From Novosphingobium decolorationis (GTDB lineage Bacteria; Pseudomonadota; Alphaproteobacteria; Sphingomonadales; Sphingomonadaceae): a stretch of DNA of 64,000 nt. A program made the translations under genes and the position numbers. Numbering within the stretch: the first letter of the stretch is position 1; each line of letters opens with the position of its first letter. Where the stretch lies: positions 1,953,001 through 2,017,000 of the forward strand of contig NZ_CP054856.1 in assembly GCF_018417475.1 (NCBI RefSeq), in the 5' to 3' direction. Below, one piece after another: positions 48,114-56,428 of this stretch. The notes below the pieces were generated by a model. It saw nothing but the letters and a program-made list of their open reading frames with translations, was not told the DNA's origin and made no database searches.

Positions 48114-48767
48114 TCAGCGTTCGAAGCGCGCGCTTGTCAGCGCCTCGATCGTTTCGAGATCCACGCCGGGTGCGATCTCGACGAGGCGAAACGGCCTGTG
48201 ATGATCGGGTCGCTCGAACACCGCGAGATTGGTGACGATCATGTCGACCACATTGAGCCCGGTGATCGGCAGCGTGCAGTCGGGAATGAATTTGGGCGTG
48301 CCGTCCTTCGCGGCATGATCCATCACGACGATGATCTTCTTCACACCCGCGACCAGGTCCATGGCGCCGCCCATGCCCTTCACCATCTTGCCGGGGATCA
48401 TCCAGTTGGCGATGTCGCCATTTTCTGCTACTTCCATCGCGCCCAGGACCGCGAGATCGATATGGCCACCGCGGATCATCGCGAAGCTGTCGGCGGACGA
48501 GAAATAGGATGTCTGGGGAAGCTCGGACACGGTCTGCTTGCCCGCATTGATGAGGTCGGCATCCTCCTCGCCCTCGTAGGGAAAGGGACCGATGCCGAGC
48601 ATGCCATTCTCCGATTGCAGCGTGACCTCGACGCCCGGCGGCACATGGTTCGCAACCAGGGTGGGGATGCCGATCCCGAGATTGACGTAGAATCCGTCCC
48701 GGAGCTCGCGCGCGGCACGCGCCGCCATCTGGTCCCTCGTCCAGCCTTGCGAACTGCCGCTCATCAT
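48114..48767 (-). CDS. scoB: 3-oxoacid CoA-transferase subunit B
   Basis: 217 residues, the catalytic half of a succinyl-CoA:acetoacetate CoA-transferase. The nucleophilic Glu lies in LQSENGMLGIGPFP. Other conserved parts are NLGIGIPTLVANHVPPGV, GHIDLAVLGAMEVAENGDIA and NWMIPGKMVKGMGGAMDLV. It is the last gene of the eight-gene operon and overlaps scoA by four bases; a GGGAGGAGG ribosome site lies upstream. The usual donor is succinyl-CoA, turning acetoacetate from HMG-CoA cleavage into acetoacetyl-CoA. Confidence 0.93.
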   Translation of the reverse strand: MMSGSSQGWTRDQMAARAARELRDGFYVNLGIGIPTLVANHVPPGVEVTLQSENGMLGIGPFPYEGEEDADLINAGKQTVSELPQTSYFSSADSFAMIRGGHIDLAVLGAMEVAENGDIANWMIPGKMVKGMGGAMDLVAGVKKIIVVMDHAAKDGTPKFIPDCTLPITGLNVVDMIVTNLAVFERPDHHRPFRLVEIAPGVDLETIEALTSARFER

Positions 48768-49471
48768 GCCTCCTCCCGCGCGCGCACCGTGCGCTGCTCA
48801 ATTTTCTTCGTGTAAGGTGCGCCGCAGATCAGGCGATTCACGTAGATCCCCGGCAAATGAATCTGATCGGGCTCGAGGGTGCCGGTCGGCACGATCTCCT
48901 CGACCTCGGCGATGCAGATGCGCCCGCAGGTCGCGGCCGGCGCGTTGAAGTTGCGGGCGGTCTTACGGAAGACCAGATTGCCGCTTTCATCGGCTTTCCA
49001 GCCCTTGATGATCGACAGGTCGGCCGTGATGGCGAGCTCCAGCACATAATCATGCTCGCCGAACCGCCGGACCTCCTTCCCCTGGGCCACGAGAGTCCCG
49101 ACTCCGGTGCGGGTATAGAATCCGGGAATGCCCGCGCCTCCCGCCCGCATACGCTCGGCGAGCGTCCCTTGCGGACAAAATTCGACCTCGAGTTCGCCGG
49201 TCAGATATTGTCGCTCGAACTCTTTGTTCTCGCCGACATAGGAGGCGATCATCTTGCGCACCTGACGGGAGCGAAGGAGCTTGCCGATCCCTTCATTATC
49301 GATGCCGGCATTGTTCGAGGCGAAGGTCAGATCGCGCACGCCCGAGGTCTCGATTGCGTCGAGCAGCCGCTCGGGGATGCCGCAAAGCCCGAAACCGCCG
49401 CTCGCGATCGTCATGCCATCGGTCAATAGACCGGCCAGCGCCGTATCGGCGTCGGCATAGATTTTTCTCAC
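48764..49471 (-). CDS. scoA: 3-oxoacid CoA-transferase subunit A
   Basis: 235 residues, CoA-binding half of the CoA-transferase. Family segments are DGMTIASGGFGLCGIPERLL, FASNNAGIDNEGIGKLL, SYVGENKEFERQYLTGELEV and the PGFYTRTGVGTLVAQGKE region. The start is GTG, overlapping the lyase gene stop (GTGA). It pairs with scoB. The subfamily is the succinyl-CoA:3-ketoacid type rather than the 3-oxoadipate type, judged from sequence and the leucine-pathway neighbours. Confidence 0.92.
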   Translation of the reverse strand: MRKIYADADTALAGLLTDGMTIASGGFGLCGIPERLLDAIETSGVRDLTFASNNAGIDNEGIGKLLRSRQVRKMIASYVGENKEFERQYLTGELEVEFCPQGTLAERMRAGGAGIPGFYTRTGVGTLVAQGKEVRRFGEHDYVLELAITADLSIIKGWKADESGNLVFRKTARNFNAPAATCGRICIAEVEEIVPTGTLEPDQIHLPGIYVNRLICGAPYTKKIEQRTVRAREEA

Positions 49472-55226: not shown

Positions 55227-56428
55227 TGCGCCACGCCGATCAGTTCGCGACCGATCAGCATACGGCGGATTTCATTGGTGCCTGCGCCGATATCCAGAAG
55301 CTTGGCATCGCGCATATAGCGTTCGACAGGCCAATCCTTCGTATAACCGGCGCCGCCTAACGCCTGCACCGCCTCCAGGGCGACGCGCACGGCATTTTCG
55401 CTTGCCAGAAGGATTGCGCCGGCCGCATCGAAGCGGGTGGTCCTGCCCGCGTCACAATTGCGTGCCACGGCGTAGACATAGGCGCGCGCTGAATTGAGCG
55501 CGACATACATATCGGCGACCTTCGCCTGCATCAGTTGAAAGGAGCCGATCGGCTGGCCAAACTGCTTGCGGTCCCGGACATAAGGGATGACCGTATCGAG
55601 GCAGGCTTGCATGATGCCCAGCTGGATGCCCGCCAGAACCGCACGCTCATAGTCGAGGCCGCTCATCAACACTTTCGCGCCGCCATTGAGCGGTCCCATG
55701 ACATTTTCGCGCGGGACTTCGCAGCCGTCGAACACCAGCTCTGCCGTCGGCGAGCCGCGCATTCCCGTCTTGTCGATCTTCTGCCCGATCGAAAAGCCCG
55801 CCATGCCCTTCTCGATAAGGAAAGCGGTGATCCCCTTGCTGCCTTCGCCGGTCCTAGCATAGACGACTAACGTGTCGGCATAGGTGGCATTGGTTATCCA
55901 GAATTTCGTGCCATCAAGAACGAAGCCGACACTCGTCTCTCGCGCCTTCAACTTCATCGACACGACGTCGGAGCCGGCTCCCGCCTCGGACATGGCCAGC
56001 GATCCCACATGGTCGCCGGAAATCAACCGCGGCAGATATTTCGCCTTCTGATCCTCATTGCCCCAGCGGCGGATCTGGTTGACGCAAAGGTTGGAATGGG
56101 CGCCATAACTAAGGCCGATCGAGGCGGAGGCCCGGCTGATCTCCTCGCAGGCAAGAACATGCTCAAGATAACCGAATCCGAGACCACCCCATTCTTCTTC
56201 CACAGTGATGCCGTGCAGGCCCAGATCTCCCATCGCGGTCCACAATTCGTCGCGCGGGAACCAGTCCTCGGCATCGATCTTCACTGCCAGCGGAGCAATG
56301 CGTTCGGTCGCGAAGCGTCTTGTCGTCTCGCGAACCATATCGGCGTTGTCGCCGAGTCCGAAGTCAAAATCAGCAGCCAAATGCCCACTCCATTGTGCCG
56401 GGTCTACCCCAGGCATAGCATCGGGCAT
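55223..56428 (-). CDS. ivd: Isovaleryl-CoA dehydrogenase
   Basis: 401-residue FAD acyl-CoA dehydrogenase that oxidises isovaleryl-CoA to 3-methylcrotonyl-CoA. Visible are GITVEEEWGGLGFGYLEHVL, LSYGAHSNLCVNQIRRWGNE (segment typical of IVD), LAMSEAGAGSDVVSMKLKA, DKTGMRGSPTAELVFDGCEV, FGQPIGSFQLMQAKVADMY and the C-terminal LLDIGAGTNEIRRMLIGREL. In IVD the catalytic Glu is placed earlier than in most relatives; the region is ERAVLAGIQLG here. First gene of the operon. The start may be 56428 or 56416. Confidence 0.94.
   Translation of the reverse strand: MPDAMPGVDPAQWSGHLAADFDFGLGDNADMVRETTRRFATERIAPLAVKIDAEDWFPRDELWTAMGDLGLHGITVEEEWGGLGFGYLEHVLACEEISRASASIGLSYGAHSNLCVNQIRRWGNEDQKAKYLPRLISGDHVGSLAMSEAGAGSDVVSMKLKARETSVGFVLDGTKFWITNATYADTLVVYARTGEGSKGITAFLIEKGMAGFSIGQKIDKTGMRGSPTAELVFDGCEVPRENVMGPLNGGAKVLMSGLDYERAVLAGIQLGIMQACLDTVIPYVRDRKQFGQPIGSFQLMQAKVADMYVALNSARAYVYAVARNCDAGRTTRFDAAGAILLASENAVRVALEAVQALGGAGYTKDWPVERYMRDAKLLDIGAGTNEIRRMLIGRELIGVAQ

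What the first reader, a model, noticed from the sequence alone, without database searches (positions are those of the whole stretch)
48114..56428. Leucine/isovalerate operon using MaoC- and CitE-type enzymes in place of LiuC and LiuE
The operon encodes isovaleryl-CoA dehydrogenase, both methylcrotonoyl-CoA carboxylase subunits and the acetoacetate CoA-transferase, but the middle steps are represented by a MaoC hydratase and a CitE-like lyase. From memory, the M. tuberculosis locus Rv2498c-Rv2504c has the same set (citE, MaoC, fadE19, accA1, accD1, scoA, scoB), and its CitE acts on (R)-HMG-CoA. The window may thus show the same (R)-configured HMG-CoA route in a sphingomonad.
Basis: partly seen in the sequence, partly recalled or inferred. 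Interest (0 to 1): 0.7.

Follow-up and report, generated by a model that had tools for sequence, protein, structure and literature searches.

The report
Alternative isovalerate/leucine breakdown operon
A sphingomonad operon for breaking down isovalerate (and so leucine) carries a different pair of enzymes for two middle steps, the kind of pair known from the tuberculosis bacillus, and the same swap recurs in related soil bacteria that mostly lack the textbook pair.

Summary
The genome shows no LiuC-clade hydratase and no LiuE-clade lyase, though two HMGL paralogues in unrelated clusters pass NCBI's broad HMG-CoA-lyase cut-off. Of the 80 best lyase loci, 43 have MccB, MaoC and CitE together (Rhizobium, Sphingobium, Novosphingobium, Hyphomonadaceae and others). 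Of 41 such genomes searched, 3 have LiuE, 1 has LiuC, none has both. The lyase model fits M. tuberculosis Rv2498c (and CLYBL equally); Mg ligands and carboxylate-binding residues are conserved. The best tree puts these lyases outside the Rv2498c clade, but one origin is not rejected. The cluster lies between inverted IS21 copies; 23.3 kb, about half outside the window, matches conjugative plasmid pC8-2 at 99.96%. Most likely this is an (R)-HMG-CoA isovalerate/leucine route of the mycobacterial kind. Substrate and stereochemistry are inferred, not shown.

The parts
55223..56428 (-). isovaleryl-CoA dehydrogenase (liuA-type)
   Evidence: Pfam acyl-CoA DH domains; best PDB matches are isovaleryl-CoA dehydrogenases
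53625..55226 (-). 3-methylcrotonyl-CoA carboxylase beta subunit (carboxyltransferase)
   Evidence: PF01039 506 bits; PDB MCC beta 778 bits against 458 for geranyl-CoA carboxylase; the top hit 9tps (782) is named propionyl-CoA carboxylase
52633..53625 (-). biotin synthase BioB, between the MCC genes; start at 53625 by 1-nt overlap with MccB
   Evidence: TIGR00433 379 bits over cut-off 225; start; in 1 of 43 operon loci, the near-identical L048
50762..52636 (-). 3-methylcrotonyl-CoA carboxylase alpha subunit (biotin carboxylase plus biotinyl carrier); start at 52636 or 52618
   Evidence: Pfam biotin carboxylase and biotinyl domains, weak BT_MCC_alpha; start
50307..50762 (-). MaoC-type hydratase, proposed 3-methylglutaconyl-CoA hydratase forming (R)-HMG-CoA
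   Evidence: PF01575; RipB_Ich 122.9 bits, below cut-off 340; Thr/Ser-x-Asn motif, Asn in 49 of 49 rows
49468..50310 (-). CitE-like acyl-CoA lyase, proposed (R)-HMG-CoA lyase; start at 50310 by 4-nt overlap
48764..49471 (-). 3-oxoacid CoA-transferase subunit A (ScoA)
   Evidence: TIGR02429 227.7 bits over cut-off 128.5
48114..48767 (-). 3-oxoacid CoA-transferase subunit B (ScoB)
   Evidence: TIGR02428 315.4 bits over cut-off 243.55
56468..57349 (+). divergent LysR-type regulator, about 39 nt from the first gene
   Evidence: Pfam HTH_1 and LysR_substrate; LysR also beside 7 other operon loci
57358..59430 (-). TonB-dependent receptor of the same cluster
   Evidence: Pfam; identical on pC8-2
59648..61819 (-). 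GAF/sigma-54/Fis regulator (true start probably further in)
   Evidence: Pfam; identical on pC8-2
61816..63579 (-). AMP-binding acyl-CoA ligase (start probably near 63444)
   Evidence: Pfam AMP-binding; annotated on pC8-2
63444..64000 (-). aldehyde dehydrogenase, runs off the window (contig 2016444-2017907); a PQQ alcohol dehydrogenase follows outside
   Evidence: L164 ORFs and Pfam
45129..47641 (-). IS21 element flanking the cluster; the inverted partner lies outside the window (equivalent to 73701-76213)
   Evidence: 99.5% identical copies over 2514 bp

Best explanation
The operon converts isovaleryl-CoA to acetyl-CoA and acetoacetyl-CoA by a route in which LiuC and LiuE are replaced. Isovaleryl-CoA dehydrogenase makes 3-methylcrotonyl-CoA. 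MCC, with biotin helped by the operon's own BioB, makes 3-methylglutaconyl-CoA. The MaoC hydratase adds water to give (R)-HMG-CoA. The Mg-dependent CitE-like lyase cleaves it by retro-aldol chemistry to acetoacetate and acetyl-CoA. ScoAB re-activates acetoacetate with succinyl-CoA. Shown here: the gene identities, the tight operon, no LiuC- or LiuE-clade enzyme found in this genome, the conserved replacement in many Alphaproteobacteria, and conserved active-site residues. Inferred: the substrates of the hydratase and lyase, the (R) configuration, the biotin supply, and that upstream genes (PQQ alcohol dehydrogenase, aldehyde dehydrogenase, acyl-CoA ligase) feed 3-methylbutanol or isovalerate into it.
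Confidence: 0.74

Rival explanations
1. The MaoC-CitE pair is an itaconate/citramalate module (itaconyl-CoA hydratase plus (S)-citramalyl-CoA lyase) parked in an MCC operon, perhaps bifunctional as in M. tuberculosis.
For: Rv2498c acts on citramalyl-CoA (PMC6689899); a solved relative, 8khl, is titled (S)-citramalyl-CoA lyase; weak similarity to RipB_Ich and RipC_Ccl.
Against: RipB and RipC scores lie far under NCBI cut-offs (122.9 of 340, 168.1 of 375). The transferase is SCOT-type. The pair co-occurs with IVD and MCC in 41 of 80 loci and mostly where LiuC/LiuE were not found.
Confidence: 0.1
2. Leucine/isovalerate carbon leaves by other crotonase and HMGL paralogues in the genome and the MaoC-CitE pair acts on another glutaconyl-CoA-like product.
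For: The genome has 14 crotonase-domain matches, two HMGL proteins over NCBI's HMG-CoA-lyase cut-off and a second MCC at contig 2594 kb.
Against: None of the crotonases is over 36% identical to a LiuC row; the two HMGL proteins fall outside the LiuE rows and sit in leuC-leuD-HMGL-CoA-transferase and HMGL-hydantoinase-CoA-transferase clusters. Pair and MCC are co-conserved across families.
Confidence: 0.11
3. The route is right but the stereochemistry is not: MaoC gives (S)-HMG-CoA and the lyase takes it.
For: No enantiomer test exists for this clade that I found; one pocket residue differs from Rv2498c.
Against: The Mg ligands and carboxylate-binding loop, to which the selectivity of Rv2498c is ascribed, are unchanged (PMC6689899 section read).
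Confidence: 0.05

Closest known systems
M. tuberculosis / M. smegmatis accD1-accA1-fadE19-Rv2499c-citE leucine route via (R)-HMG-CoA
   Same: MCC plus acyl-CoA dehydrogenase plus hydratase plus CitE-type lyase in one operon; same fold and metal site of the lyase
   Different: Here a true IVD leads the operon, whereas the dehydrogenase of the related Tsukamurella operon is 37% identical to it; LysR instead of a TetR regulator; lyase outside the Rv2498c clade in the best tree; Thr for Met133; bioB included; IS-flanked
Canonical liu operon (LiuC crotonase, LiuE (S)-HMG-CoA lyase), e.g. A. vitis pRvVAT039a, S. meliloti pSymB
   Same: Both MCC subunits (and IVD on pSymB); pathway input and output
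   Different: Hydratase and lyase belong to unrelated families and the intermediate is the other HMG-CoA enantiomer (inferred)
Itaconate degradation RipA-RipB-RipC / Ict-Ich-Ccl
   Same: MaoC hydratase followed by CitE-family lyase
   Different: CoA-transferase here is SCOT-type (that RipA is of another type is recalled); scores under family cut-offs; IVD and MCC present
Stand-alone MaoC-CitE pairs of Alphaproteobacteria, 10 of 14 with another acyl-CoA dehydrogenase in the fetched stretch
   Same: Adjacent MaoC and CitE, the same motifs; in the best tree grouped with the operon lyases (92/97), as a weakly supported subgroup of their own (80/73)
   Different: Not in an IVD-MCC operon; co-occur with canonical LiuE in 3 of 125 genomes; function unknown

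Membership tests
(R)-HMG-CoA leucine/isovalerate route (mycobacterial type) | MCC, acyl-CoA dehydrogenase, MaoC-type hydratase and CitE-type lyase encoded together | tested here: met
   together in 43 of 80 loci
(R)-HMG-CoA leucine/isovalerate route (mycobacterial type) | Lyase keeps Mg ligands Glu112/Asp138, Arg64 and the 135-138 loop of Rv2498c | tested here: met
(R)-HMG-CoA leucine/isovalerate route (mycobacterial type) | LiuC and LiuE absent from the genome | tested here: met
   No member of either clade found; but two HMGL paralogues pass NCBI's broad HMG-CoA-lyase model and the joint tree with all 14 crotonases is unsettled
(R)-HMG-CoA leucine/isovalerate route (mycobacterial type) | Lyase in one clade with Rv2498c | tested here: inconclusive
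   Best tree separates them; holding them together is not rejected, AU p 0.19
(R)-HMG-CoA leucine/isovalerate route (mycobacterial type) | Enzyme specific for (R)-HMG-CoA and needed for growth on leucine | not testable with these tools
   No assay; shown for Rv2498c (PMC6689899)
Canonical liu pathway | LiuC crotonase and LiuE HMG-CoA lyase | tested here: not met
   none near the lyase in 80 loci; own paralogues outside both clades, with the caveat
Itaconate Rip/Ict-Ich-Ccl module | RipB and RipC above NCBIfam cut-offs | tested here: not met
   122.9 of 340 and 168.1 of 375 bits
Citrate lyase CitE subunit | TIGR01588 above its cut-off | tested here: not met
   131.1 of 443.4 bits

The most novel reading that the evidence does not exclude
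The (R)-HMG-CoA branch is not a mycobacterial oddity but a widespread alternative to LiuC/LiuE, built at least twice (Alphaproteobacteria, Actinobacteria, possibly haloarchaea) from a portable MaoC-CitE hydration-cleavage cassette, and in sphingomonads it travels on IS21-flanked, conjugative-plasmid-borne isoamyl-alcohol/isovalerate islands.
Probability: 0.4. Interest if true: 0.68.

Novelty: new variant of a known kind. Interest (0 to 1): 0.55.

Why it matters
Textbook and automatic annotation assume (S)-HMG-CoA and LiuC/LiuE for leucine breakdown; genomes with this operon would be scored as having a broken pathway, and their lyase is named only 'CoA ester lyase' or 'citrate lyase' in public records. 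If right, the (R) route is common in rhizobia and sphingomonads, can be tested in harmless model strains, and gives a clean case of non-homologous replacement of two consecutive enzymes with inversion of an intermediate's configuration.

Tried and rejected
LiuC/LiuE elsewhere in the genome: searched by Pfam domain, by identity and by tree; only paralogues found. The LiuC and LiuE rows of the trees were picked by identity to A. vitis (40% and 43% or more), which favours a clean split.

Independent recruitment as a firm claim: tested and not established. Holding alphaproteobacterial and actinobacterial operon lyases together is not rejected (AU p 0.19); the same for MaoC (p 0.295). For MccB a first test rejected one clade (p 0.0018), but that set wrongly left near relatives among the others; the corrected test did not reject it (p 0.458).

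Class-wide anti-association of MaoC and LiuE (3 of 18 MaoC-positive against 34 of 55 MaoC-negative MCC genomes, Fisher p 0.0009) looked strong, but the loci show most of those MaoC hits are pairs outside MCC operons: of the 18, only own, G106 and G203 have the operon. The better test is. Its Fisher p (3 of 41 against 34 of 55, 1.8e-8) compares related genomes, uses slightly different cut-offs (1e-70 and 1e-75) and is not phylogenetically corrected. Of the 43 operon loci, 41 were given; L048 (near-identical to the window) and L078 were not.

A succinate-dehydrogenase context for the MaoC-CitE pairs was suspected from memory; I saw none by eye among the ORFs of four pair loci (L170, L173, L177, L181), of L168, or near the paralogue in L029 (no family scan was run on them).

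The isoamyl-alcohol reading of the upstream genes is weakened: the module stands without the operon on pSWIT01 and Sphingobium plasmids, with an IS21 gene next to the end of the receptor gene.

Paper searches: one search listed 18 papers naming Rv2498c, of which I opened three (PMC6689899 in sections, PMC4347857 and PMC3920632 in passages). Searches listed no title or abstract start describing this route outside mycobacteria; the other listed papers were not opened (PMC5757984, on A. baumannii, holds both terms). One search had no hits. Most subscription papers are not in that library.

Because the two HMGL paralogues pass NCBI's HMG-CoA-lyase cut-off, the best explanation went from 0.77 to 0.74 and the paralogue rival from 0.08 to 0.11.
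Full report
What is there. On the minus strand, 56428 to 48114, eight genes follow each other: isovaleryl-CoA dehydrogenase, MCC-beta, BioB, MCC-alpha, MaoC, CitE-like lyase, ScoA and ScoB. With starts read from the sequence (BioB 53625, MccA 52636, CitE 50310), every neighbour overlaps by 1 to 4 nt, so this looks like one tightly coupled operon. A LysR gene is divergent, about 39 nt from the first gene. PDB sequence matches support each name: IVD over other acyl-CoA dehydrogenases; MCC over geranyl-CoA carboxylase and the other propionyl-CoA carboxylases, although the top hit 9tps is itself named propionyl-CoA carboxylase (782 bits against 778 for 3u9r); SCOT for ScoA; Rv2498c for the lyase. 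The MaoC hits solved MaoC-like proteins and 8hgn, titled mesaconyl-CoA hydratase.

Is the canonical pair elsewhere? The genome (G000, 4.75 Mb, 2 contigs, 100% complete by the tool) has four HMGL-domain proteins. One is a homocitrate synthase and one a 2-isopropylmalate synthase by NCBIfam. The other two resemble HMG-CoA lyases and both pass NCBI's broad HMG-CoA-lyase model NF004283 (274.3 and 308.3 bits, cut-off 246). They are 38% and 41% identical to Agrobacterium vitis LiuE, where the 39 LiuE hits of the class at E<=1e-75 are 45 to 61%. They fall outside a group of 21 LiuE rows (support 90/95, not starred, with long branches). They lie in a leuC-leuD-HMGL-CoA-transferase III cluster and an HMGL-hydantoinase-CoA-transferase III cluster. 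Of 14 crotonase matches, the ten in the regions I fetched all fell outside 30 LiuC rows (100/99). The other four, each 30% or less identical to any LiuC row, also fell outside when added one at a time (SH-aLRT 95-100); with all four added at once the split was lost, with long branches warned of. A direct LiuC search of the genome gave nothing at E<=1e-40; seven positive controls, chosen because their loci carry LiuC, all rang.

Conservation. In 43 of 80, MccB (70% identity or more), MaoC (60% or more) and the lyase stand together, 41 of them with IVD; 5 have MaoC without MccB; 32 have the lyase alone; none has a gene 38% or more identical to A. vitis LiuC or 43% or more to its LiuE within 9 kb (some loci are short). 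Hosts of the operon include Rhizobium, Neorhizobium, Agrobacterium larrymoorei, Sphingobium, Novosphingobium, Altericroceibacterium, Henriciella and Aureimonas. In 41 of the 43 genomes (the other two not given), LiuE at E<=1e-70 was found in 3 (G223, G229, G241) and LiuC at E<=1e-40 in 1 (G242), never both. HMGL paralogues under that cut-off, as in the window's genome, are not excluded, and several of the 41 are metagenome bins. The contrast within Rhizobiaceae is clear: A. vitis pRvVAT039a has MccB-ECH-MccA-HMGL and S. meliloti pSymB has IVD-MccB-MccA-HMGL-ECH, whereas R. johnstonii pRL10 has IVD-MccB-MccA-MaoC-CitE.

Class sample. In 125 Alphaproteobacteria (95% complete or more), MccB is present in 73, MaoC at E<=1e-38 in 18, all MccB-positive, and LiuE at E<=1e-75 in 39, 37 of them MccB-positive. 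Both MaoC and LiuE occur in 3; neither in 21 of the 73. The fetched loci (the LiuE side covers 18 of the 39 genomes) show that of the 18 only own, G106 and G203 carry the full operon. G207 has an unlinked MaoC of 73%. The other 14 carry a MaoC-CitE pair (MaoC 47-60%, lyase 42-50%), with a weak acyl-CoA dehydrogenase match in the same stretch in 10; two of these stretches (L172, L184) also hold carboxylase genes of 51% or less identity. Of the 21 'neither' genomes, 19 have a crotonase next to MccB, so they look canonical; one (G174) also has an HMGL gene of 53% there that missed the cut-off. The pair is therefore more general than this operon, and its other function is open.

Trees. The operon lyases and stand-alone relatives form one clade (40 rows, 97/93); they group with the alphaproteobacterial pairs and the own paralogue L029 (92/97), the pairs plus the own paralogue L028 forming a weak subgroup (80/73). 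Rv2498c, four actinobacterial operon lyases and one actinobacterial pair lyase form another clade (100/99). The bootstrap had not settled. The Tsukamurella operon (TetR, MccB, MccA, acyl-CoA DH, MaoC, CitE, AMP ligase, acetoacetate-CoA ligase) has a dehydrogenase only 37% identical to the window's IVD, and an MccB closer to A. vitis LiuB (66%) than to ours (62%). This favours separate assembly, but holding the two sets together is not rejected for the lyase (p 0.19), MaoC (p 0.295) or MccB (p 0.458, corrected set). I leave origin open. A Haloarcula plasmid has AMP ligase, acyl-CoA DH, biotin carboxylase, carboxyltransferase and MaoC genes in a row and a CitE-like gene nearby on the other strand, but its carboxyltransferase is only 33% identical to ours.

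The MaoC motif. All 49 MaoC rows examined (operon, pair, actinobacterial, halo) have Asn, in Thr/Ser-x-Asn, where the alignment with 4ffu shows Asp; the second domain of 8hgn also has Asn there. That this Asp is catalytic in PhaJ-type hydratases is recalled, not from a call. It hints at hydratases for dicarboxylyl-CoA substrates; this is inference.

Mobility. Inverted IS21 copies, 99.5% identical over 2.5 kb, lie at 45129-47641 and at the equivalent of 73701-76213 on the contig. The stretch 52918-76207 is 99.96% identical over 23,290 bp to the conjugative plasmid pC8-2 of Sphingomonas sp. C8-2; 11,083 bp of it lie inside the window, at 100.0%. On pC8-2 the match ends inside bioB, with an IS6100 transposase gene annotated some 2.6 kb further on. 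Sandaracinobacteroides sayramensis RS1-74 (L048) has 12.7 kb at 99.99%; the match stops within 6 bp of the inner IS21 edge on one side and at the end of the fetched stretch on the other. Upstream genes are a sigma-54 regulator, acyl-CoA ligase, aldehyde dehydrogenase, PQQ alcohol dehydrogenase and a MetA-type outer-membrane protein read in two frames. This fits oxidation of 3-methylbutanol to isovalerate, but the same module without the operon sits on pSWIT01 and Sphingobium plasmids, so the link is tentative. Of 58 other genomes coded as the same genus, 7 have the lyase at 60% identity or more, a patchy spread.

Verdict. The best reading is an (R)-HMG-CoA isovalerate/leucine route; substitution of the two enzymes is well supported, and stereochemistry is inferred by homology. 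It is known in kind from mycobacteria; what is new is the alphaproteobacterial variant, its spread, its near-exclusion with LiuC/LiuE and its mobile setting. Within the library searched, no listed title or abstract start described it.

Noticed in passing
window 52633-53625: bioB sits between the two MCC genes, a biotin gene inside a biotin-enzyme operon; of 43 operon loci only the near-identical L048 has it. A second bioB lies near the propionyl-CoA carboxylase-like gene at contig 939-949 kb.
   Followed up: partly
window 45129-47641 and contig equivalent of 73701-76213: Inverted IS21 copies flank the cluster, and 23.3 kb (11.1 kb of it in the window) is 99.96% identical to conjugative plasmid pC8-2, on which the match ends inside bioB.
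   Followed up: partly
L037:8490-9654 (contig about 126.5-127.7 kb): A second isovaleryl-CoA dehydrogenase reads in two overlapping frames, either a broken gene or an assembly error.
   Followed up: no
L046:7166-10922 (contig about 2592-2596 kb): A second MCC pair (MccA 64%, MccB 76%) without hydratase or lyase beside it, next to a 1198-aa hydantoinase/oxoprolinase.
   Followed up: no
L026:7320-11318: leuC-leuD-like, HMGL-like and CoA-transferase III genes in a row, perhaps a mesaconate/citramalate route; the HMGL protein passes NCBI's HMG-CoA-lyase cut-off, as does the one in L027:8700-9623.
   Followed up: partly
L170-L184: MaoC-CitE pairs outside IVD-MCC operons in many Alphaproteobacteria, often with an acyl-CoA dehydrogenase nearby; function unknown. 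In L172 the pair stands near a 51%-identical carboxylase.
   Followed up: partly
L232 (Haloarcula sinaiiensis pHsi540): Acyl-CoA ligase, dehydrogenase, acyl-CoA carboxylase and MaoC genes in a row, with a CitE-like gene on the other strand, next to phenylacetate genes in an archaeon.
   Followed up: partly
L161 (Sphingobium sp. TomMM7A plasmid): IVD-MccB-MccA-MaoC operon followed by a thiolase instead of the lyase.
   Followed up: no
L185 (G143): MccB 80% identical to the window's but with a crotonase (41% to LiuC) beside it, a possible intermediate arrangement.
   Followed up: no
window 57430-64000: Receptor, sigma-54 regulator, ligase and aldehyde dehydrogenase stretch is identical on four Sphingobium plasmids and present on pSWIT01, where an IS21 gene stands next to the end of the receptor gene.
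   Followed up: partly
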